Source: a virus. From it: a stretch of DNA of 26,136 nt. The DNA lies in IMG/VR virus record IMGVR_UViG_3300036770_003410, positions 1-26,136 of that record; one strand, 5' to 3'. The notes beneath the pieces are model-generated. The model saw only the letters and a program-made list of their open reading frames with translations, had not been told where the DNA came from and did no database searches. Positions 1-22,802 of this stretch are shown here, in pieces (position 1 is the stretch's first letter; each line of letters opens with the position of its first letter). Made by a program: the position numbers and the translations under genes.

Positions 1-131
1 CCGATCACTGGGGCTGCACCATTGCCGAGGCCGTGACCCGCCTGGATCAGCTCGCTGCCGACGGCTGGCTGAACTACTGGCAGGGCTACGGCGCCTTCAC
101 CATCACCCGATTGGAGATCCCCTGTGACTGA
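1..131 (+). CDS. hypothetical protein, 3' part only
   Basis: Open frame running in from the left edge (codons start at base 3) and ending at TGA 129-131. The visible 42 residues contain an acidic/hydrophobic helix-like stretch (IAEAVTRLDQLAADGWL) and an aromatic-rich end (NYWQGYGAFTITRLEIP). No recognisable family. The stop overlaps the GTG start of the next gene, the same coupling used throughout this operon, which supports the frame. The start and full length lie outside the window. Confidence 0.6.
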   Translation, partial: DHWGCTIAEAVTRLDQLAADGWLNYWQGYGAFTITRLEIPCD

Positions 132-279
132 AGCAATGACCGCCGGCCTCGCGATGGCGTGGGGCTTCCTGATGGGTGCCGCCTGGCACAGCTGGATGGA
201 ACAGAACCGCCGCGCGCGTCGCATGCCGTGGAGCATGGACAACGTGCGCAGCATCAACGACCGGAAGGTGAAGCGATGA
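124..279 (+). CDS. hypothetical small protein, possible membrane segment
   Basis: 51 residues from a GTG at 124, or 47 from the ATG at 136. GTG is preferred because it overlaps the previous stop (TGTGACTGA). The N-terminal half is hydrophobic (AGLAMAWGFLMGAAWHSW), compatible with one short transmembrane helix, followed by a basic tail (EQNRRARR). No family recognised. Its stop overlaps the next start as ATGA, so translational coupling is likely. Confidence 0.55.
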   Translation: MTEAMTAGLAMAWGFLMGAAWHSWMEQNRRARRMPWSMDNVRSINDRKVKR

Positions 280-1998: not shown

Positions 1999-2032
1999 AA
2001 GCCCCGTAAGCCATTGGCCTGCGGGGCTTTTT
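1999..2032 (+). terminator. Rho-independent terminator of the left operon
   Basis: Perfect 8-bp stem AAGCCCCG (1999-2006) with CGGGGCTT (2022-2029), an inner GCC/GGC pairing in the loop, and a T run at 2028-2032. The T run is only on the + strand side, so it terminates the left operon. It also insulates the attachment core from early transcription. Confidence 0.8.
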
Positions 2033-2038
2033 CTTGGA

Positions 2039-2113
2039 TGCGGGGGCAGGATTTGAACCTGCGACCTTCAGGTTATGAGCATGACGCTCCGGGCTACCGT
2101 GGGATCCCGCCGC
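2039..2113 (-). pseudogene. tRNA-Met(CAU)-like element; 3' half is the likely att core
   Basis: Read on the minus strand, 2080-2039 gives an anticodon loop CTCATAA (CAT anticodon), variable region AGGTC, a perfect T arm (GCAGG TTCAAAT CCTGC) and an acceptor 3' strand with discriminator A. The 5' half (2113-2081) does not restore a normal tRNA. The anticodon stem has a mismatch, the D arm is poor, and the acceptor pairs only 6 of 7 from 2113. Intact 3' half with degenerate 5' half is what a phage carries to rebuild a host tRNA on integration. A divergent but functional phage tRNA is the less likely alternative. Confidence 0.65.
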
Positions 2114-2184
2114 ATCACTGAGCCTTGATTTCCCTGGGACTGGACTACCGGCCGTTCCCGGTGTATCCCTCCGCTTCCCGGCGA

Positions 2185-5095: not shown

Positions 5096-5130
5096 GTCCC
5101 CCCGGGGTGCTGCTGCTCGGGGGGACTTTT
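5096..5130 (+). terminator. terminator between convergent operons
   Basis: Eight-base-pair stem GTCCCCCC (5096-5103) with GGGGGGAC (5119-5126), a 15-base loop, then TTTT. The T run serves + strand transcripts. The lysozyme stop codon (5130-5132, minus) abuts the hairpin, so the stem may also protect or stop the late transcript, though no T run exists in that direction. Confidence 0.8.
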
Positions 5131-5573
5131 CATGCGCGCGGCCAGAGCTCTCGCGGATCCTTGCCGGTCGCCATCATCCGGCTCAGCCGTTCAGCGCGGC
5201 CGCCGACCTGCTTCGCCCACTTCGAGTCGAGCATCATCGTGGCCGCCTGCTGGTACTGCCGGCTCTGCATGGCGCCCAGCGTGCGCCGGAACTCCAGCAG
5301 GCCGGCGATCCCCATGTTGAAGGCCATGTCGACCACGACCCGCTGACGCACCTCGTCCATCTCGCCCACCCAGGGCAGGGCCGCCAGCACCTGGCGCTCG
5401 ATCGCGCCGATGTCGTTGGCCAGCAGCATCGCCGATTCCTCGGCGGTGATGCCACGGTCCTCCAGGTTGCGGCCGATGCCGATCGTCAGCTTGCCGGCGG
5501 TGCAGCGGTAGGGCTTGAGGCGCTCCCCCTCGTGGAGGCGGAGCTGCCTCACCATCGCGTCACGGTTCACCAT
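5130..5573 (-). CDS. endolysin, T4-type lysozyme (GH24)
   Basis: 147 residues. Muramidase that cleaves the glycan backbone of peptidoglycan at lysis. The N-terminus HEGERLKPYRCTAGKLTIGI carries the GH24 catalytic pattern E-8-(D/C)-5-T as E15, C24 and T30. C24 replaces the aspartate of T4 lysozyme, a substitution established in many phage members. The rest (MAFNMGIAGLLEFRRTL, WAKQVGGRAERLSRMM) matches the C-terminal helical lobe. There is no signal peptide or N-terminal anchor, so release needs a holin. Last gene of the late operon; the start lies 3 bases past the upstream stop. Confidence 0.93.
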   Translation of the reverse strand: MVNRDAMVRQLRLHEGERLKPYRCTAGKLTIGIGRNLEDRGITAEESAMLLANDIGAIERQVLAALPWVGEMDEVRQRVVVDMAFNMGIAGLLEFRRTLGAMQSRQYQQAATMMLDSKWAKQVGGRAERLSRMMATGKDPRELWPRA

Positions 5574-5787: not shown

Positions 5788-6501
5788 TCAAGGTTGAGCA
5801 ATGATGGCCCAGCCGGTGCCGGGCCCCTCGACCATCCAGCGACGGCCGAGGTTCTGGCGGCTGTATCTGAGGCGGGCGCCCCAGTTGTTCAGGTAGCGGC
5901 CGGCCACCAGGTCCAGGTCGCCGAACGGGTCGTGCACCGTGATGGCGTTGGGGTCGTAGCCGATGGCGGTGATCCAGTGGCCGCCGCCGGAGGGTGCCGA
6001 CGCCGGGCCCTTGTGCAGGATGCCGATCGGCACCGGGATGCCCGCATCGATCTGCTCCTCGAGCTCGCTCCAGTCCGCGTCCTTCACCAGGCGCGCCGTG
6101 ACGCCGAACGACTGCAAGGCCTTGAGCTGCGCGTCTGGGTCGGTGGTGTCGCCGTAGCGCAGCACGCGGCCCAGGTAGGCGTCGTCGGCATTGGGCCCCT
6201 GCAGGGTGCCCGGCCGGATCGTCTCCAGCAGCATGGCGCAGGCGGAGCTGAAGCACATGCGGAGCGCGTGCTCGGTCTCGCTGTCCCGCTGGCTGTAGTA
6301 CGGCACCTGGAGGGGGTTCGTCAGCGTGCGCGGCTTCGCCTGCTTCCCGTCGGCCTGCCAGGTCTTGTAGTGCTCGGAGTCGCGCTTCTTCAGGCTGGCG
6401 GGCACCTTCTCCCAGAACTGCAGCACCGCCGCCCGCTGACGGGGGAGCCCCTTCCAGTGCTCGAAGAACGGGATCGGGTCGGTGATCAGGTTGTCGCTCA
6501 T
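5788..6501 (-). CDS. C39-like cysteine peptidase in the lysis cassette
   Basis: 237 residues. A papain-fold peptidase of the C39-like type. VPYYSQRDSE (66-75) gives the oxyanion glutamine Q71, MCFSSACAMLLE has nucleophile C83 (C88 nearby), GGGHWITAIGYD has H175, and VHDPFGD gives D191. No signal peptide and no ABC transporter nearby, so a bacteriocin-processing role is unlikely. A second endolysin cutting peptide cross-links is the best inference. The N-terminal 60 residues (FFEHWKGLPRQRAAVLQFW) may be a binding or positioning segment. ATGA overlap with the XhlA-like gene upstream. Confidence 0.8.
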   Translation of the reverse strand: MSDNLITDPIPFFEHWKGLPRQRAAVLQFWEKVPASLKKRDSEHYKTWQADGKQAKPRTLTNPLQVPYYSQRDSETEHALRMCFSSACAMLLETIRPGTLQGPNADDAYLGRVLRYGDTTDPDAQLKALQSFGVTARLVKDADWSELEEQIDAGIPVPIGILHKGPASAPSGGGHWITAIGYDPNAITVHDPFGDLDLVAGRYLNNWGARLRYSRQNLGRRWMVEGPGTGWAIIAQP

Positions 6502-6755
6502 CGCGTGTGCTCGACGCGAGCTGGCCCGAACTCTAGGCGCGGCCCGGCCATCGTCACCAGCAGCGGCATCACGATCGAGACCACCACTGCGATGATCACG
6601 CCCTGGGCGATGCGCTTCTCCGCCTGGTTCAGCCGGCGGAATGCCTCGATGATGTCGGATCGGTTGTTTGCCATCGTCTCGTGGATGGCATCGAGCTTGC
6701 CCTCCAGGTGGCCGATGGCGCGCAGGATGTCGCCATGATTCACGTCCTCGGGCAT
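6498..6755 (-). CDS. XhlA/holin-like coiled-coil membrane protein
   Basis: 85 residues. The N-terminal 48 residues form an amphipathic coiled coil (ILRAIGHLEGKLDAIHETMANNR, IIEAFRRLNQAEKRI), then a single transmembrane helix at about 52-70 (VIIAVVVSIVMPLLVTMAG) and a short tail. This layout is that of the XhlA/hemolysin-type lysis proteins. Placed between the hub gene and the C39 peptidase, it most likely helps endolysins reach or disrupt the membrane. Which of this and the 66-aa protein is the true holin cannot be decided here. Confidence 0.65.
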   Translation of the reverse strand: MPEDVNHGDILRAIGHLEGKLDAIHETMANNRSDIIEAFRRLNQAEKRIAQGVIIAVVVSIVMPLLVTMAGPRLEFGPARVEHTR

Positions 6756-6780: not shown

Positions 6781-8613
6781 CTACTTCAGCCGCCAATACT
6801 CAGGCGTGCGGCCGTAGGTGCTGGTGTAGCTGCCTTCGCCAGCTGCCCAGCTGAAACTGGCCCGGCTGCTGCTGTTGCTGATGATCGTCCGCCCGTCGTT
6901 GCCCACCACGCCGATGTGCGGATAGGGCGGGTTGCCGTTGTCGCGCATGATCGCGATGGCGCCCGGCTCCGGTCCGCTGAGCAACGTGCCGGCGCCAGCC
7001 GCCAGCGAGGCCCGTGCCGTCGGAACGTAGGTGCTGCCGCCCCATGGTGGCGTCACCCCCGCGCGTCGCAGCACACGGTTCACGGCCCAGAGGCAGGCGT
7101 TGTTCCCGCCCGATGGCCCCCCGCTGGTGTTCATGCCCCGGGCCGACTCCGCAGCGCCGGCGATCACCTGCGCCTTCTCGCTCGGCGGCAGGCCGTTGTT
7201 CCGCCCGCGCGGCCCGTCCGATCCCGACGCCCAGTCGTTGTTCTCGTCGCCCAGGGTGCCGGCCTCCACGCGGGTGCGGAACCCGGAGCCGTCGACGGTG
7301 TGCGTCACCCGGCGGATGTTCCATGACCCGTCGACCTCAGGCCGGAACCCGGACAGGGTGATGGTGCCCTCGGCGTTCAGATCCGGCCGGCCGGCCATCT
7401 CCAGGTCGATGCTCACCTCGCCCGAGCGGAGGGACTGCAGGCGGCTGGAGGCGGCCGCCTCGGCATCGGCCTGGGTGCGGAACACCTGCCGCTCCTCGTA
7501 GGCCGGCGCGGGGCCCGCCTGGCCCTGCGTCACGACCTTCTCGGTGTTGGTGGTGCGATCGATCCAGCGCGCCTTCACCTGGCCGTAGGCGCCGCGGTTC
7601 TTCAGGCGCGCGCTCCACCTGCTGCACTCGTTCTCCGCCACGGTGAACGAGCCGCCGATCGCCATCGAGGCCGGCTGCGCTGCAGCGGTGCCGGCGCCAG
7701 CCTGCGCCGCCTTCAGGTAGCCCTTGTAGGCGCCGGAGGTGTAGGTGCTCCAAGCGCCGAAGCCCTGCTGCTGCCAGATCGCGCGGGCCGCCCTGGCGTT
7801 GGTCGCCGGATCGAACAGTGCCTCGTTGCTGCTGATGCCCAGCTGCGCCCGCCGGGCCGGGCCCATGCTGCCGAGCATGTTGATCTGCCAGAGGCCGTAG
7901 CTGTTGTCAGGCGGTCTGGGGTTGTGGGCCCTCGCATTGCCGCTGCTCTCCGCCATGGCGATGGCGCCCATGGTGATCGCGTCCTGCCCGCTGAAGCCGG
8001 CCTGTCGCGCCAGGCCCACGGCCTGCGCTGCGCTCACCCGGCCCGCACCAGTCGGCGCCGGGCTAGCGACGCCACTGCCCCTGGGCGCCAGCACCAGCGC
8101 GCCGTCGGCCGGCTTCGCGGTCACCTTGTATCGCTCCGCCAAGCGGGTGAGGAACGCCTGGTCGCTCTCGTTCGTCTGGTCCTCGTGCTTGATCTGCGCT
8201 GCGCCAGCGTTCTGGATCTCGACCAGCCGCAGGCCGTTCGTGGTGGCGATCTGCTGCGCCACCTCCCGCAGGGTGGTGTCGTGCCAGCTCTTGGTGCGCA
8301 GCTCCCGCAGCAGCTCCGGCGCGGTGTTGGCGGCCGTGGCCTTGATCGTCATCACCCGCGGCCCGCCGGTCACCTCCACCTCGTCGACGGCGTAGGCGCC
8401 GACGTAGACCGGCCGGTCGTAGCCCAGGTAGAGCCGCAGCCAGGTTCCGCTGGCCGGCACCTGCAGCAGGCGGTCGCGATCGTCCAGCCGGATCTCCAGC
8501 GCGTCCGACTTCTGGCCGGCCTCGTCCGTGACGGTGAGGCGGTCGAGCCGGTCGCTGATCTGCGCCGTGATGTCGGCGCCATCGGCTTCGATGCGGAAGG
8601 CGGGTGTGCTCAT
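6781..8613 (-). CDS. D: tail hub protein D with two peptidoglycan-hydrolase domains
   Basis: 610 residues, against under 400 for P2 gpD. Residues 1-178 and about 320-456 form the gpD/gp27-like hub (RLYLGYDRPVYVGAYAVDEV, then IDLEMAGRPDLNAEGTITLS). Between them, about 190-305, is a lytic-transglycosylase/lysozyme-like domain: E222 in AIAMAESSGN, SYGLWQIN at 238-245, RAARAIWQQQGFGAWSTY. After a Gly/Ser/Asn-rich linker (457-505), residues 505-610 look like a CHAP/NlpC-type cysteine peptidase: C507 (NNACLWAVNRVL), H566 (YPHIGVVG), N580. The hub sits at the tail tip and would open the cell wall at infection. ATGA-type overlap with gpX upstream. Confidence 0.88.
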   Translation of the reverse strand: MSTPAFRIEADGADITAQISDRLDRLTVTDEAGQKSDALEIRLDDRDRLLQVPASGTWLRLYLGYDRPVYVGAYAVDEVEVTGGPRVMTIKATAANTAPELLRELRTKSWHDTTLREVAQQIATTNGLRLVEIQNAGAAQIKHEDQTNESDQAFLTRLAERYKVTAKPADGALVLAPRGSGVASPAPTGAGRVSAAQAVGLARQAGFSGQDAITMGAIAMAESSGNARAHNPRPPDNSYGLWQINMLGSMGPARRAQLGISSNEALFDPATNARAARAIWQQQGFGAWSTYTSGAYKGYLKAAQAGAGTAAAQPASMAIGGSFTVAENECSRWSARLKNRGAYGQVKARWIDRTTNTEKVVTQGQAGPAPAYEERQVFRTQADAEAAASSRLQSLRSGEVSIDLEMAGRPDLNAEGTITLSGFRPEVDGSWNIRRVTHTVDGSGFRTRVEAGTLGDENNDWASGSDGPRGRNNGLPPSEKAQVIAGAAESARGMNTSGGPSGGNNACLWAVNRVLRRAGVTPPWGGSTYVPTARASLAAGAGTLLSGPEPGAIAIMRDNGNPPYPHIGVVGNDGRTIISNSSSRASFSWAAGEGSYTSTYGRTPEYWRLK

Positions 8614-8825
8614 CAGCCGTCCCAGATCCGCAGCGTCTCGGTGGACTCTGGCGCAGGGAGATCAGGCAGCAGGAGCTCCAGGCCCGCCGGCAGGATCGGC
8701 GCGATGTCCGCCAGGCCGGGGTTGATCTGCAACACCGCCTCGACGGTCTGCTGCGTGCGGCCGTAGAACCGCCAGCAGATGTCGTCCACCATGTCGAACT
8801 GCCGGGTGACGTAGAGCTGGCTCAT
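8613..8825 (-). CDS. X: tail protein X (LysM-like)
   Basis: 70 residues matching the small P2 gpX family. It has a LysM-like fold with YVTRQFDMVDDICWRFYG, VEAVLQINPGL and a closing LPAGLELLLPDLP. In P2 it sits between U and D in tail assembly, exactly as here. The start overlaps the U stop and its stop overlaps the D start, so the U-X-D block is translationally coupled. Confidence 0.9.
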   Translation of the reverse strand: MSQLYVTRQFDMVDDICWRFYGRTQQTVEAVLQINPGLADIAPILPAGLELLLPDLPAPESTETLRIWDG

Positions 8826-9748
8826 GGGCGGATCACCTGACGCACGGCCTCAGTGATGCGAGGGTCGACATCCAGCATGGTCCCGATTGTCGAAGCATCG
8901 CGCACCAGGTTGGCCAGCGCGGCGCCGCCCTGGGCCCCACCGCCGAGCGTCTGGAGCATGGCGGTGGTGGCGGGCCGCAGTGCATCGAGCGCGACCGCGA
9001 TGGTGGGCGCTGCGCGGCCTTGGAGCATCTGCTGGCCCAGCTGCGCGGCATTGATGCCCAGCTGCGCCCAGACGCTCTGCTGCGCGCCAGAGAGGTTGCT
9101 GAGGCCGAACGCATTCAGCGCGGCGCCCACGTAGTCCCGGTTGGCGATCGAGGCGGTGATGGCCCCGATCTGGCCGAGCTGCAGGCCCGCGCCTCGCGCT
9201 GCATTGCCGGCGGTGCTGGTCGCCCAGTCGAGCGCCTTGAACGCCGAGCCTGCGCCGGTCTGCGCGGTGACGCCGTTCAGCGCCTGCTGCACCGTGCTGA
9301 CTGCCGAGGGGTTGCTGGTCGCGCTGGTGCTGCTCGGGCTGGCGGCCTGCCCGGGGCGATCCTCGCCGTAGCGAACCAGGCTGAGGGTGAACCCGACCTT
9401 GCGGGCGCCGCCGCCGGGTGCGAACACCGCCTGCCCCTCGCGCACGCGCGTGAGGGCCCAGCGGCCGTAGACCTTGCCCAGGCCATCCGACAGCATCTGC
9501 GGCTGGCCCGTTGCCGCCAGCGTGCGCAGCGTCTCCAGCGTGGACTGGCGGCCCGTCAGGCCGGGGTAGAGAGTGCCCTCCAGGGTGATCTCCTGGCGGC
9601 CGGGGCCGATGAACTGCGCCGCCGGCTCGCGGCTGATCCGATCGATCAGCTCCCAGCGGTACTCCGCATCCCGGTCGAGGGTCTGCGGCGCACCGTTCGG
9701 GAGGTCGAACTGGAACGAGCCGAGCTGGAACAGGGGACGAGCGGCCAT
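8822..9748 (-). CDS. U: tail protein U (P2 gpU-like) with extended C-terminus
   Basis: 308 residues. The first 130 are the P2 gpU family: LFQLGSFQFDLPNGAPQTLD, WELIDRISREPAAQFIGPGR, ITLEGTLYPGLTGRQSTLE and a final FTLSLVRYGED. gpU proteins act at the tail end during assembly. P2 gpU is about half this length; here some 170 residues follow, starting with a Ser/Thr/Pro linker (ASPSSTSATSNPSAVS) and then Ala/Gly/Gln-rich helices that match nothing I recognise. No stop or frame break is seen, so this is a real extension. Confidence 0.88.
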   Translation of the reverse strand: MAARPLFQLGSFQFDLPNGAPQTLDRDAEYRWELIDRISREPAAQFIGPGRQEITLEGTLYPGLTGRQSTLETLRTLAATGQPQMLSDGLGKVYGRWALTRVREGQAVFAPGGGARKVGFTLSLVRYGEDRPGQAASPSSTSATSNPSAVSTVQQALNGVTAQTGAGSAFKALDWATSTAGNAARGAGLQLGQIGAITASIANRDYVGAALNAFGLSNLSGAQQSVWAQLGINAAQLGQQMLQGRAAPTIAVALDALRPATTAMLQTLGGGAQGGAALANLVRDASTIGTMLDVDPRITEAVRQVIRP

Positions 9749-9753
9749 GGTGA

Positions 9754-12045
9754 TCAGTCGCTGAGCAGGGTGCGATGCGCGGCCTCGAGCTCGCGCTGGA
9801 TGTCGGCAAAGGCCAGGCGAACCTGATCGCGGATGCCTTGCGCATCACCGCCGGCAGCGTGGATCGTGACCGGCGCATGCACCGTGATCGATCGTGCAGC
9901 CGCTGAGGGAGCGGGGGCAGCCGGCGCCTGGGGGGCGATCACAGCAGCAGGCGCAGGCGCCGCCATGAGGGACGCCAGCGCGGCTGCAGTGACGGGCCGG
10001 GCGATCTTGGGGATGATCGCCCCATCCATGCCGGGCACGAACAGCTCCCGCCGCCGCTCGCCCACCACGTAGGGGTTGCCTGCGCGGACGGTGCCGCCAT
10101 TGGCGCGGCCCGGTGGGGTGACCGGCAGCGATGGCGCCGCGGGTGCGGGCGCCGAGTCTCCACCGCCGACGATGCCACGGATCCGGGCCCATGCCCCGCT
10201 CACCCAGCCGAACAGGCCTGCGGCCTTGGCCTTCAGCCCGTCGATGATGCCGGTGATGATCCGCTGCCCGATGTTGCCCTCCTGGAACATGCGGATGATC
10301 GCGGCCGGGATGGGGAACATCACGCTCAGCACCTTGGGCGCCCAGGCGCGGATCACGCCGAGCGCCTGGTTGAACATGCCGCCGATCCACTCGGTGAACC
10401 TGCCCCACTTCTCGACGATGCCCTGCCATGCACGGCCGGCGGCTTCCTTCACCTTGTCCCAGTGCTTCACCAGCAGGAAGATGCCAACGCCGATGCCGGC
10501 GATCAGCGCGATCCACGGCAGCAGGGGCAGCATGGCGGCGCCGAACGCAGTGCCGAGGGTGCCGATCGCAGGTAGCCAGCCGGCGATGAGCCCGCCCACG
10601 TTCATCGCCACCACTGCAGCCTTCGCCGCGATGAAGGCGGTCTTCAGGGTGCCGATCGCGGTGATCACCCCAGCGATCACCGGCAGGGCGATCACCAGCC
10701 CAGCCAGTGCACCACCGACCAGGACGATGCCGGTGACGAGGCCCTGGTTCTGCTGAGCGAACTCGGCGAAGCGGACGAGCACCGGGCCGATGGCCTTCAT
10801 GATGGCGTTCAGGCTCGGCAGGATCGCGGTCCCGATGCTGATGCCGAGGGCGTTCACGCCGTTGCGGAAGATGGTCGCCTGCGCTGAGGCGGTGCCCATC
10901 TGGTTGGCGAACTCCTTCTGCATCGAGCCGGCAAACGCCGACTTCTCCCGCACCAGGTCGAACGCCTGGTCGACCAGCTTCAGGTTGGTCAGCAGCGGCA
11001 TGATCGCCGACTTGCTCTCCTCGCCGAACAGGGCGCCAGCGATGCTGACCTGCTGCTCCTTCGGCAGCTTGGTCATGCGCTCGAGGACGCTCTTGATCGT
11101 CGCCTCCGGCGCGGTCTGCATCCCCTTGGCCAGCTCCTCGGAAATCTCGATCGCGGCCTTCTTCGCCTCCTTCTTCGCGGCGCCCTTCCCGCGCTTCAGC
11201 GTGTCCGCCATGTCCTCCCCGCTGAACAGGGTGGCGAGCGCAAAGGTCTGGTTCTGCGTGGCCTGGCTGCCCTTGGTGAGGGCGTTCAGGAAGTTCTTCA
11301 GGCCGGTGGCGGCCACCTCCGCCGGCGTGCCGCTGGCCAGGAACGCGGCGCCCATCCCCGCCACCTGCTCGGAGGTGAGGCCGGCGGCCTTGCCGATGGC
11401 GCCGATCCGGCGCGTCACCTCGGTCAGGTCGGCGGCGTTCACCGTGCCTTGGAACTTGTCCGAGAGGTAGTTGATGGCGTCGCCCAGGCTCTCGACCTGC
11501 GGCTGCGTGAGGCCCATTGAGGCCCGCAGCGCCACCATTGCGTCGCCGGCCTGCTCTGCCGTCATCTGGAACGCCACGCCCATTCGCGCTGCCGCGCGCG
11601 TGAACGGGATGATCTCGTCCTCGGCGTAGCCAGCGAAGCCGGCGGATGCTGCGATCTGGCTCAGCTGCGCCGCGGTGTACGGCAGCTCGGTGGACAGCTT
11701 GATCAGCTGGTTGCTGAACCGCTTCAGGCCTTGCTCGCCCTCCTTGAAGTCGATGGCCTTCTTCACGTCGGCCATGCTCTTGTCGAACTCCATCGCGGCC
11801 TTCACCGACAGGCCGATGGCGCCAGCGAATGCCGTTGCCCCGATCGTTGCCTGCTGCCAGAGGGCCGAGTCGAAGACGTTCTTGAAGCTCTTGCGGCTGG
11901 CGGTCGCCGCGTCGTTCATCGTCCGCGAGACGTTGCGGCCGAACGTCGACACCTGCATCTGCGCGCTGCGCACCGATGCAGCGAGAGAAGCGGCAACCTT
12001 GCCGCCGATCTCGACTGTGACCTTGCTGATGCCGCCCTGGATCAT
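9754..12045 (-). CDS. T: tail tape measure protein
   Basis: 763 residues, the largest gene here. It sets tail length and is threaded through the tube. Residues about 60-400 form the TP901-type core (VKAAMEFDKSMADVKKAI, YTAAQLSQIAASAGFAGYAE, GLTSEQVAGMGAAFLASG). Residues 436-525 are strongly hydrophobic (VLVGGALAGLVIALPVIAGV, PLLPWIALIAGIGVGIFLLV), as usual for membrane-penetrating tape measures. The C-terminal motif GGTVRAGNPYVVGERRRELF is typical of the family. At about 0.15 nm per residue the tail would be near 110 nm. Its ATG overlaps the E+E' stop (ATGA). Confidence 0.95.
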   Translation of the reverse strand: MIQGGISKVTVEIGGKVAASLAASVRSAQMQVSTFGRNVSRTMNDAATASRKSFKNVFDSALWQQATIGATAFAGAIGLSVKAAMEFDKSMADVKKAIDFKEGEQGLKRFSNQLIKLSTELPYTAAQLSQIAASAGFAGYAEDEIIPFTRAAARMGVAFQMTAEQAGDAMVALRASMGLTQPQVESLGDAINYLSDKFQGTVNAADLTEVTRRIGAIGKAAGLTSEQVAGMGAAFLASGTPAEVAATGLKNFLNALTKGSQATQNQTFALATLFSGEDMADTLKRGKGAAKKEAKKAAIEISEELAKGMQTAPEATIKSVLERMTKLPKEQQVSIAGALFGEESKSAIMPLLTNLKLVDQAFDLVREKSAFAGSMQKEFANQMGTASAQATIFRNGVNALGISIGTAILPSLNAIMKAIGPVLVRFAEFAQQNQGLVTGIVLVGGALAGLVIALPVIAGVITAIGTLKTAFIAAKAAVVAMNVGGLIAGWLPAIGTLGTAFGAAMLPLLPWIALIAGIGVGIFLLVKHWDKVKEAAGRAWQGIVEKWGRFTEWIGGMFNQALGVIRAWAPKVLSVMFPIPAAIIRMFQEGNIGQRIITGIIDGLKAKAAGLFGWVSGAWARIRGIVGGGDSAPAPAAPSLPVTPPGRANGGTVRAGNPYVVGERRRELFVPGMDGAIIPKIARPVTAAALASLMAAPAPAAVIAPQAPAAPAPSAAARSITVHAPVTIHAAGGDAQGIRDQVRLAFADIQRELEAAHRTLLSD

Positions 12046-19850: not shown

Positions 19851-21371
19851 TCAGGTGTTCGGATACGGGCCGGTGGGAACCACAAGCGGCAGAGCGTGCC
19901 CAACGGTGTAGACGAGATCATCAATCCGCCCACCGAAACCATAGGTAGACCCGGTGGTGTAGTTGCCGATGATGGTCTTGCGGCCCGAGAATCCAGGGTT
20001 GTAGTTGTAGTTGAAAGTGTCGGCGACTGTCGTGGCCGATGGCACTCCATCCACTGCCATTTTGATCACGCCGTTCTCGCGCACCAGTTGGACATGGTGC
20101 CAGGCGTTGAACGTGATCGGCGAAGAGTAGGTCAATCCGGCTGCGAAGTTGACCCATTGCAGGTCGAACGTTGTCGCGTTCACGTACTGCCCAAACAGCC
20201 TGCCGGCCATCCCCGGGCTGCCGGATGGGAGCTGGATGATCGTTTCGACGATGCCCAGCGATCCCGGCACGTAGATCCAGGCCGCGATCGTAAAGTCCCC
20301 AGTTCCCGGCGCCAGCAGCGGATGATCGAACGCAATCGCATGGCCGGTGTAACCGAACTCCGCCGGTGGCCAGCTGAAGCGCGCGGATCCCGTCCCCCAC
20401 TTCACGAAGTCATCGACGATCCGCGCCGCTCCGTAGACCTCTGCGGTCAGCGTGTTCGTCTGCGCATCGTTCACGAACAGCGTTGAGCCGTTGGCGCCGT
20501 CCATGTGCAGGACCAGCGCGGCGGGGGGCGTGCTCGTTTCCGTTCCCATGCCGCTGAACACCAGCACGTTGGGCGTGGGCCATGACTGATCGAGCCAGTC
20601 GAACCATTCCCACGTCTGCCCCTCGTACACAGCGCTCAGGCCAATGGTCTCGGTGAGCAGTCCCGGCAGGTTGAGCAGATGCCATTCCTCATCCAGCAGG
20701 GAATGATCCAGGCGGAACACGTCGTCCGCGATGACCAGCGCCCCAGCGCATGCGGTGTGCGCTTGCGACACGGTGGCGCTGCCATCCACCAGGGCGGAGA
20801 GCGCCTGGCCGTAACTGATCTGCGGCCAGTCCGGCCGCGGCCGCACGCCGCTGTGATCCGACAGCATGCCGCCATCCGACAGCAGGCTGTCGTCCAGCAC
20901 GAACCGGCGGAAGTCGTAGACCGCGTAGATGCGCTGCAGCCGGGAGCGTACCGGCGCGCTGATCCGCGCCACGCCCACGATGTCGTTGATGATCGCCTCG
21001 CCCTGCGTCGCAGCAGGCAGGCCGATCTGAAACTCGGACCAGCGGTAGCTGCCGCCCTCGCTTTCGTCGATCGTGCCCTGCAGGCCAATCCAGCCCAGGG
21101 CAATCGCGATCGACTCCGGCGTCCCACGGATGCGCTGCCACAGCACGCCCTCGGCCACGGCCCGCCGCTGATCGTTGCCGAGGTACGGCAGGATCTCGCC
21201 CAGGCCGTACTCGTAGATCAGCCACGGCACCACGCTGTCGGGGATGTCGACGCGCTTCGCGGTGCGGATGACCGGGACCGGGCCGCCGGCCCGTTGCAGG
21301 CTGGAGACCGTGCGGGAAACGTCGCGCTCGAACTGCGTGGAGTTGGGCGGCAGCAGGTCGAACCGGCTCAT
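19851..21371 (-). CDS. I: baseplate protein I fused to a LamG lectin-like domain
   Basis: 506 residues, against 176 for P2 gpI. Residues 1-160 are the gpI family: LLPPNSTQFERDVSRTVSSL, IPDSVVPWLIYEYGLGEILP, GTPESIAIALGWIGL, SRLQRIYAVYDFRRFVLDDS. After a Trp/Asp-rich linker, residues about 285-506 are a concanavalin/LamG domain: LVLHMDGANGSTLFVNDAQT, GDFTIAAWIYVPGSLGIVET, FNAWHHVQLVRENGVIKMAV, RIDDLVYTVGHALPL, PTGPYPN. The fusion puts a probable glycan-binding module on the baseplate. Overlaps J by four bases. Confidence 0.88.
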   Translation of the reverse strand: MSRFDLLPPNSTQFERDVSRTVSSLQRAGGPVPVIRTAKRVDIPDSVVPWLIYEYGLGEILPYLGNDQRRAVAEGVLWQRIRGTPESIAIALGWIGLQGTIDESEGGSYRWSEFQIGLPAATQGEAIINDIVGVARISAPVRSRLQRIYAVYDFRRFVLDDSLLSDGGMLSDHSGVRPRPDWPQISYGQALSALVDGSATVSQAHTACAGALVIADDVFRLDHSLLDEEWHLLNLPGLLTETIGLSAVYEGQTWEWFDWLDQSWPTPNVLVFSGMGTETSTPPAALVLHMDGANGSTLFVNDAQTNTLTAEVYGAARIVDDFVKWGTGSARFSWPPAEFGYTGHAIAFDHPLLAPGTGDFTIAAWIYVPGSLGIVETIIQLPSGSPGMAGRLFGQYVNATTFDLQWVNFAAGLTYSSPITFNAWHHVQLVRENGVIKMAVDGVPSATTVADTFNYNYNPGFSGRKTIIGNYTTGSTYGFGGRIDDLVYTVGHALPLVVPTGPYPNT

Positions 21372-22207: not shown

Positions 22208-22545
22208 CAGATCACCAGCCCCTCCAGGGTGACGCGCTCGCCGTTGAGCAGGTAGTACCCGACCAGGCTAAGGGTGATCTGCCCCTCGGCCGTGACGGAA
22301 TCGATGTTGACCTGCTCCAGGCGCAGGCGCGGCTCCCAGCGATCGAGCGCCTCGGCGGTGGCCGCCACCAGATCCGCCACGAGGGACTGGTTCACCGGCC
22401 GGTCGACGAGCCGCGGCAGCCGGGAGCCGTAGTCCCGCCGGTGCACGCGGGTGCCGACGGGCGTGGACAGGATGTCCTCGATCGACTGCCGCAGGTGATC
22501 GAAGCCGGCCAGGGCTTCCCCGGTGCGGCGGTTCATGCCGGCCAT
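22207..22545 (-). CDS. W: baseplate protein W (gp25-like)
   Basis: 112 residues, usual length. T4 gp25/P2 gpW family: FDHLRQSIEDILSTPVGTRV and HRRDYGSRLPRLVDRPVN, with the conserved EPR core (RWEPRLRLEQVNID) that nucleates sheath polymerisation. The stop and start overlap neighbours on both sides by one base. Confidence 0.95.
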   Translation of the reverse strand: MAGMNRRTGEALAGFDHLRQSIEDILSTPVGTRVHRRDYGSRLPRLVDRPVNQSLVADLVAATAEALDRWEPRLRLEQVNIDSVTAEGQITLSLVGYYLLNGERVTLEGLVI

Positions 22546-22802
22546 CAGTTCACCTCCACGTCAGGGCTGCCGCCGAGCAGCGTGGCGCCGCAGGCGGTGG
22601 TGTCACCCACTCTGGCGACCCGGCGGCCGTTGGCGTAGGTGTCGGGGCTGCCGGAGGCGATCGGGTTGGGCCCGTGCTCCAGGCAGTCGTAGGTGTCGCC
22701 GATGCGAGCCACCCCGATGCCGTTGGCCTTCACGTCACCGCTCGCGGTCACCACCGTGCCGCCGTGGGAGCCAGGATCGCCGAGGCGGATGACGTGTGGC
22801 AT
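22545..22802 (-). CDS. PAAR-domain tail spike tip
   Basis: 85 residues. The sharp tip that caps the central spike. VIRLGDPGSHGGTVVTASGD, GIGVARIGDTYDCLEHGPN, NGRRVARVGDTTACGATL give the threefold-repeat beta cone. Probable metal ligands are H13, C40 or H43, and C71. Stand-alone, located between V and W, matching spike assembly onto V. It has no C-terminal effector extension. Confidence 0.9.
   Translation of the reverse strand: MPHVIRLGDPGSHGGTVVTASGDVKANGIGVARIGDTYDCLEHGPNPIASGSPDTYANGRRVARVGDTTACGATLLGGSPDVEVN

What the first reader, a model, noticed from the sequence alone, without database searches (positions are those of the whole stretch)
6781..8613. Tail hub D carrying two separate cell-wall hydrolase domains
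The gpD hub fold is interrupted by a transglycosylase-like domain (E222, SYGLWQIN; bases about 7699-8046) and extended by a CHAP/NlpC-like domain (C507, H566, N580; 6781-7161). P2 gpD has neither. One polypeptide would combine a structural hub, a glycan cutter and a peptide cutter, which would suit piercing a thick cyanobacterial wall. Phages usually place such activity on a separate spike or on the tape measure.
Basis: partly seen in the sequence, partly recalled or inferred. Interest (0 to 1): 0.7.

Follow-up and report, generated by a model that had tools for sequence, protein, structure and literature searches.

The report
Cyanophage tail hub with two wall-cutters
The protein that forms the tip of this phage's injection tail carries a sugar-chain cutter and a peptide cutter for the bacterial wall; the kind is already known from two other tail machines, but here the two cutters are swappable parts that differ from one related phage to the next.

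Summary
ORF 6781-8613 (-), 610 aa, is a P2/pyocin-type tail hub (Phage_GPD; pyocin R2 hub 6u5h, E 4e-46). It is split after about residue 181 by a 140-residue lysozyme/transglycosylase domain (SLT_3, 1e-18; E222) and ends in a CHAP-like domain (C507/H566/N580; just under Pfam's cut-off). P2 gpD has neither.

About 70 distinct related hubs from viral contigs and Cyanobium/Synechococcaceae prophages show the domains are modules. Every complete cyanophage-type hub ends in a peptidase: CHAP, or an M23-like domain whose halves match M23 in swapped order. The lysozyme is optional; one clade of lysozyme-bearing hubs is rejected (p 2e-20). In one pair of close relatives it is a clean ~366-nt presence/absence. 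E222 is invariant (16/16). Both domains are under purifying selection. The lysis cassette is separate.

Best reading: three hub copies carry both enzymes through the outer membrane at contraction and open the relatively thick picocyanobacterial wall. No activity was measured.

Novelty is limited. Diffocin CD1368 (hub + transglycosylase + endopeptidase) and cyanophage A-1(L) gp15 (inserted glycan-cutting domains + C-terminal peptidase; two domains active in vitro) were published in 2024. This is a new variant: different enzymes, insertion site and phage group.

The parts
6781..8613 (-). Tail hub gene (gpD-like), 610 aa, P0001
   Evidence: ORF; Phage_GPD 4.9e-17; PHROG 52 tail protein 1e-98; pyocin R2 hub 6u5h 3.8e-46
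8071..8613 (-). Hub fold, first part (residues 1-181)
   Evidence: 6u5h aligned 4-184; beta-rich with moderate confidence in the AF2 model
7654..8070 (-). Inserted lysozyme/transglycosylase-like domain with linkers (residues 182-320; core 201-290 at 7744-8013)
   Evidence: SLT_3 1.3e-18, SLT 6e-7; family profile to C-type lysozymes 3e-4; absent as a block from CHAP-only and M23-type relatives
7948..7950 (-). Codon of E222, presumed catalytic acid
   Evidence: Invariant in 16/16 distinct lysozyme-bearing hubs
7249..7653 (-). Hub fold, second part (residues 321-455)
   Evidence: 6u5h aligned 357-451; Phage_GPD best stretch 303-441
6784..7173 (-). C-terminal CHAP-like peptidase domain (residues 481-610)
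   Evidence: CHAP 1.6e-5 for the domain alone, 14 of 16 relatives match; C507, H566, N580 conserved
8616..8825 (-). gpX-like tail protein, directly upstream of the hub
   Evidence: PF05489 1.3e-23
8822..9748 (-). gpU-like tail protein
   Evidence: PF06995 1.1e-33
5130..5573 (-). Separate phage lysozyme (PF00959 type), part of the lysis cassette, not of the hub
   Evidence: PF00959 1.7e-12; present with or without hub lysozyme in relatives
5788..6501 (-). Separate C39-like peptidase, probable endolysin
   Evidence: PF13529 4e-9; PHROG 10051 endolysin 1e-68
6498..6755 (-). Small membrane-protein candidate between hub and C39 gene, possible holin
   Evidence: Hydrophobic stretch in the sequence; conserved position in relatives; no convincing family match

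Best explanation
It is the baseplate hub of a temperate, P2-type contractile-tailed phage of freshwater picocyanobacteria, fitted with a virion-borne wall-opening tool. A glycan cutter sits in a loop of the hub fold and a cysteine peptidase hangs from its C-terminus. By homology with pyocin R2 and diffocin the hub is a trimer at the tube tip behind the spike, so a virion would carry three copies of each enzyme. On sheath contraction the spike crosses the outer membrane and the hub brings both enzymes to the peptidoglycan, where they cut strands and stem peptides locally so the tube can pass. Release of progeny is left to the separate downstream cassette. Shown here: gene, domains, conserved residues, purifying selection, modularity, separate lysis genes. 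Inferred: trimer, timing, bonds cut, activity.
For: Domain matches. Catalytic residues conserved. dN/dS for lysozyme 0.05-0.32 and for the peptidase up to 0.21 in pairwise tests, where it could be computed. The same kinds of domain sit on other virion proteins: the lysozyme at the C-terminal end of podophage proteins in the tail/internal-core gene region (P-SCSP1, S-CBP3); the CHAP in T4-like cyanophage proteins, in S-CAM7 together with a second lysozyme type; the swapped-half M23 in tape measures and a podovirus-like protein. A separate lysis cassette is present in most relatives with or without the hub lysozyme. Spike gpV and tape measure of this phage carry no hydrolase domain by Pfam. Precedents: A-1(L) gp15 with in vitro activity and diffocin CD1368.
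Against: No activity data. The AF2 model has low confidence for the lysozyme part (pLDDT mostly under 50), so the fold of that domain rests on sequence profiles. CHAP lies just under Pfam's cut-off and its profile finds no solved structure. Whole-hub fold matches are significant but with low TM-scores (about 0.12-0.22 by query length), as expected for a split multidomain chain. One relative (L054) has lost the CHAP histidine. The host of the window itself is inferred from relatives.
Confidence: 0.83

Rival explanations
1. The two domains bind but no longer cut: they anchor or steer the hub in the wall, and puncture is mechanical, as proposed for phage phiCD508.
For: phiCD508 penetrates a thick wall with a bare hub (PMC13324602); relative L054 has lost the CHAP histidine.
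Against: Catalytic residues are invariant or nearly so; both domains are under purifying selection; the C-terminal slot is filled by two different peptidase types, which binding alone does not call for.
Confidence: 0.08
2. The hub hydrolases serve mainly in lysis from without or in release of progeny, as an endolysin.
For: A relative of this CHAP domain ends a glucosaminidase + peptidoglycan-binding protein in a Cyanobiaceae genome (L094).
Against: The domains are fused to a structural hub; a separate C39 and lysozyme cassette follows the hub in most relatives with enough sequence, with or without the hub lysozyme.
Confidence: 0.04
3. The domains are only lodgers spread by recombination, neutral or nearly so for infection of the present host.
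For: Lysozyme presence changes at least six times on the tree; a close relative lacks it cleanly.
Against: The C-terminal peptidase is present in every complete cyanophage-type hub found; dN/dS is well under 1.
Confidence: 0.05

Closest known systems
Cyanophage A-1(L) hub gp15 (PMC10966104; GenBank OR360731)
   Same: Trimeric contractile-tail hub of a cyanophage; glycan-cutting domains inserted in the hub chain and a peptidase at the C-terminus; endoglucanase and peptidase domains lyse Anabaena cells in vitro.
   Different: 899 aa; insert begins at residue 56 and holds a lysozyme plus a DPBB domain (PF03330); peptidase is an ordinary M23 (PF01551 5e-11). No BLAST similarity to the window hub. 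Different phage group and host.
Diffocin hub-hydrolase CD1368 (PMC10996793; PDB 8v3w)
   Same: Hub + lytic transglycosylase + endopeptidase in one 581-aa chain; found by fold search with the window hub (E 2.4e-9).
   Different: Both enzymes in tandem after an uninterrupted hub; transglycosylase is MltA-like; Gram-positive target; bacteriocin, not a phage.
Pyocin R2 hub (PDB 6u5h) and P2 gpD
   Same: Same hub family; 6u5h 3.8e-46, P2 gpD 40% identity over 182 aa; P2 also has the order T-U-D.
   Different: 329 and 387 aa; P2 gpD shows no hydrolase domain by Pfam and 6u5h aligns only to the two hub parts.
Hub of the Cyanobium sp. N5-Cardenillas prophage (L087)
   Same: Phage_GPD hub in a picocyanobacterial genome, with a lysozyme-like insert and a C-terminal M23-like domain.
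   Different: Another lysozyme type (41% identical to one in Synechococcus phage S-CAM7), inserted near hub residue 100; no SLT_3 match.

Membership tests
P2 gpD / pyocin-type baseplate hub (Phage_GPD, PF05954) | Hub fold by profile | tested here: met
   PF05954 4.9e-17 (cut-off passed); 6u5h 3.8e-46; fold search top hits are hubs and VgrG-like proteins
P2 gpD / pyocin-type baseplate hub (Phage_GPD, PF05954) | Position after tape measure, gpU and gpX in a P2-like tail operon | tested here: met
   PhageMin_Tail 9754-12045, gpU 8822-9748, gpX 8616-8825
P2 gpD / pyocin-type baseplate hub (Phage_GPD, PF05954) | Trimer at the tube tip | not testable with these tools
   Inferred from homologues
SLT / lysozyme-like fold (SLT_3 PF18896, SLT PF01464) | Profile match above cut-off | tested here: met
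   67.7 against 27 and 29.4 against 21.3 bits
SLT / lysozyme-like fold (SLT_3 PF18896, SLT PF01464) | Catalytic Glu and conserved YGLWQIN motif | tested here: met
   E222, G240, Q243 16/16
SLT / lysozyme-like fold (SLT_3 PF18896, SLT PF01464) | Predicted lysozyme fold | tested here: inconclusive
   pLDDT mostly below 50 in the insert
CHAP (PF05257) | Profile match above cut-off | tested here: not met
   25.7 bits for the domain alone, cut-off 26; so called CHAP-like. 14 of 16 relatives match at E up to 0.1, best 2e-6
CHAP (PF05257) | Cys-His-Asn/polar triad | tested here: met
   C507, H566, N580 conserved; H lost in L054
Dual-hydrolase hub (A-1(L) gp15, diffocin CD1368) | Hub + glycan cutter + peptide cutter in one chain | tested here: met
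   Domain content
Dual-hydrolase hub (A-1(L) gp15, diffocin CD1368) | Hydrolytic activity | not testable with these tools
   Needs an assay
Dual-hydrolase hub (A-1(L) gp15, diffocin CD1368) | Homologous enzyme domains (would make it the same lineage rather than the same design) | tested here: not met
   No BLAST similarity of the window hub to A-1(L) gp15, and the CHAP profile finds no counterpart there; diffocin transglycosylase is MltA-like

The most novel reading that the evidence does not exclude
In cyanophages the tail hub is a socket with several tolerated insertion sites (near residues 55, 100 and 181 in window numbering) and an exchangeable C-terminal slot. Phages trade glycan cutters (at least two types) and peptide cutters (CHAP, or an M23 with permuted order) through them to match the wall of the current host, so hub make-up predicts host wall chemistry.
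Probability: 0.3. Interest if true: 0.65.

Novelty: new variant of a known kind. Interest (0 to 1): 0.42.

Why it matters
It extends the dual-hydrolase hub, known from one cyanophage and one bacteriocin, to a P2-type phage group of picocyanobacteria. It also supplies natural with-and-without comparisons: close relatives that differ by the lysozyme insert, and groups that differ by the peptidase. That makes a question left open in the C. difficile review, how critical the hub enzymes are for wall penetration (PMC13324602), testable with natural variants.

Tried and rejected
Chimera or misassembly: rejected, because 16 distinct lysozyme-bearing hubs share the layout. Hub enzymes as the endolysin: rejected, because a separate cassette is present. 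Hydrolase on spike or tape measure of this phage: none found by Pfam. Fold search with the M23-like domain: no meaningful match; the search follows chain order and the alignment was shallow, so the permutation rests on swapped profile halves. CHAP profile against solved structures: nothing. Search of the tRNA-like 41-mer with up to 2 mismatches in 151 genomes of the Cyanobium family: no hit, so the att site alone does not fix the host; its 21-base 3' end is exact both in a Synechococcaceae MAG and in Azospirillum. Guessing an accession for A-1(L) from memory fetched another phage; corrected through the paper. Kinship between the L087 lysozyme and the A-1(L) lysozyme was not supported by BLAST.

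Full report
What is there. The ORF at 6781-8613 on the - strand (610 aa) is a baseplate hub. Pfam Phage_GPD matches at 4.9e-17, PHROG 52 at 1e-98, and the pyocin R2 hub 6u5h at 3.8e-46. The last aligns in two pieces, residues 4-184 and 357-451, so the hub fold is interrupted. The interruption holds a lysozyme/transglycosylase-like domain (SLT_3 1.3e-18, SLT 6e-7, residues 201-290). The C-terminal 130 residues are CHAP-like (1.6e-5 for the domain alone, 0.3 bits under Pfam's cut-off; 14 of 16 relatives match). The gene follows tape measure, gpU and gpX, as expected for a P2-type tail. P2 gpD itself shows only Phage_GPD.

More than chance. A scan of viral contigs found 391 relatives, of which 80 were kept; later scans added more, and after removing duplicates 85 distinct ORFs remained. 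E222 is present in 16 of 16 lysozyme-bearing hubs; C507, H566 and N580 in 41, 40 and 41 rows, nearly all others being M23-type or cut off. Pairwise dN/dS among relatives is 0.05-0.32 for the lysozyme domain and at most 0.21 for the peptidase where it could be computed (simple Nei-Gojobori counts by script; some synonymous distances are near saturation or very small). Both domains therefore look kept as working parts, though no activity is shown.

The domains are modules. In the 75 rows put on the tree, 34 have CHAP without the lysozyme, 20 an M23-like domain without the lysozyme, 15 lysozyme + CHAP (including the window), and one (L020) lysozyme + M23-like. The L087 hub has a different lysozyme type plus an M23-like domain (it appears twice because two fetches overlap). 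Azospirillum hubs, about 350 aa, have neither. No complete cyanophage-type hub lacked a C-terminal peptidase domain; those that seemed to were cut by contig ends, had small motif variants, or, in L080, were broken by a frameshift. The lysozyme state changes at least six times and the peptidase state twice on the hub-core tree without the long L087 branch; one clade of lysozyme-bearing hubs is rejected (AU p 2e-20) and one clade of M23-type hubs is disfavoured (p 0.02). Recombination within the gene could inflate these counts. In L016 against L026 the lysozyme is a clean presence/absence of about 366 nt; the 878 aligned nt downstream are 97.8% identical and the 484 upstream 87%.

An M23-like domain in swapped order. 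In the M23-type relatives the Pfam M23 profile's C-terminal part matches before its N-terminal part (L060 408-451 to profile 2-44; L076 348-366 to profile 68-86; both below Pfam's cut-off). Against solved M23 peptidases the family profile again aligns in swapped order (for 9gy1, profile 52-119 to chain 25-88 and profile 11-28 to chain 107-124; best E 2e-4). I read this as a circular permutation. A model of the domain (pLDDT 78.7) found no fold match, so the structural test is inconclusive. The domain is not in the window. It also occurs in Acinetobacter tape-measure proteins and at the end of a podovirus-like protein in viral contigs.

Where the parts come from. The window lysozyme's best matches among named phages are in Streptomyces phages of about 18 kb such as WheeHeim (67% identity), and in virion-region proteins of Prochlorococcus P-SCSP1 (55%) and Synechococcus S-CBP3 (38%). 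The CHAP domain's best matches are in T4-like Synechococcus phages ACG-2014e and S-CAM7; in S-CAM7 it follows a lysozyme of the L087 type (41% identity), and the ACG-2014e sequence looks similar by eye. A related CHAP also ends a glucosaminidase protein in a Cyanobiaceae genome (L094).

Host. Relatives lie in a Cyanobium MAG (L082), a Synechococcaceae MAG (L083) and Cyanobium sp. N5-Cardenillas (L087). The window integrase is 89% identical over 371 aa to that of L082, which sits near a tRNA-fMet; the window has a degenerate fMet-like stretch beside its own integrase. Only 4 of 400 genomes in the family gave a match, one of them L094, which is not a hub, so such prophages are rare. A picocyanobacterial host is likely but not proven.

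How it most likely works. By homology the hub is a trimer under the tube and around the spike. At contraction the spike crosses the outer membrane, and the hub brings three glycan cutters and three peptide cutters to the wall. A review gives cyanobacterial peptidoglycan as thicker than in most Gram-negatives, about 15 nm in Synechococcus (PMC9025173), which makes the need plausible. The separate cassette of possible holin, C39 peptidase and phage lysozyme follows the hub in most relatives with enough flanking sequence, with or without the hub lysozyme, so the hub enzymes add to it.

What is known. Two published hubs already combine these functions. Cyanophage A-1(L) gp15 has a lysozyme and an endoglucanase domain (56-430) ahead of most of the hub and a C-terminal peptidase (736-899); endoglucanase and peptidase domains lysed Anabaena cells and mutants lost activity or expressed poorly (PMC10966104). 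I find its peptidase to be M23 and its second domain DPBB, with no BLAST similarity to the window hub. Diffocin CD1368 has both enzymes in tandem after the hub (PMC10996793). The present hub is a variant: CHAP-like peptidase, an SLT_3-type lysozyme, another insertion site, a P2-type phage. By aligning A-1(L) 482-532 with window 107-159 (weak score) its insert would fall near window residue 55, against about 100 in L087 and 181 here; this mapping is approximate.

Limits. The full-hub model is usable for hub and CHAP parts only; significant fold matches are to hubs and VgrG-like proteins, with low TM-scores. Nothing here measures activity, and paper searches covered open-access papers only.

Noticed in passing
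L060 7012-7392, L076 4019-4399, L020 3499-3879: C-terminal M23-like domain with its two motif halves in swapped order, a probable circular permutation; a paper search for circularly permuted M23 gave six papers, none opened, none of which by title or abstract describes it.
   Followed up: partly
L087 9995-11998 and 13138-14232: Prophage hub of Cyanobium sp. N5-Cardenillas with a second lysozyme type at another hub site; a similar lysozyme-like stretch stands alone nearby, joined to a YkuD domain.
   Followed up: partly
window 2031-2130: Degenerate tRNA-fMet-like stretch next to the integrase gene, probable attachment site; ARAGORN calls no tRNA there.
   Followed up: partly
window 19851-21371: gpI-like baseplate protein (Tail_P2_I) carries a C-terminal laminin-G/lectin-like domain.
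   Followed up: no
window 8822-9748: gpU-like protein is 308 aa; PF06995 covers only residues 10-129, leaving a long C-terminal extension also seen in relatives.
   Followed up: no
window 22545-22802: PAAR-motif gene next to the spike gene gpV, a possible spike tip.
   Followed up: no
L206 1380-4286 and L209 1106-3004: T4-like cyanophage proteins annotated 'late control gene D protein' show no Phage_GPD match; S-CAM7 carries a lysozyme-like stretch and a CHAP/Amidase_5 domain.
   Followed up: partly
L054 2608-2997: A CHAP-type hub relative with a deletion over the catalytic histidine, possibly inactive.
   Followed up: no
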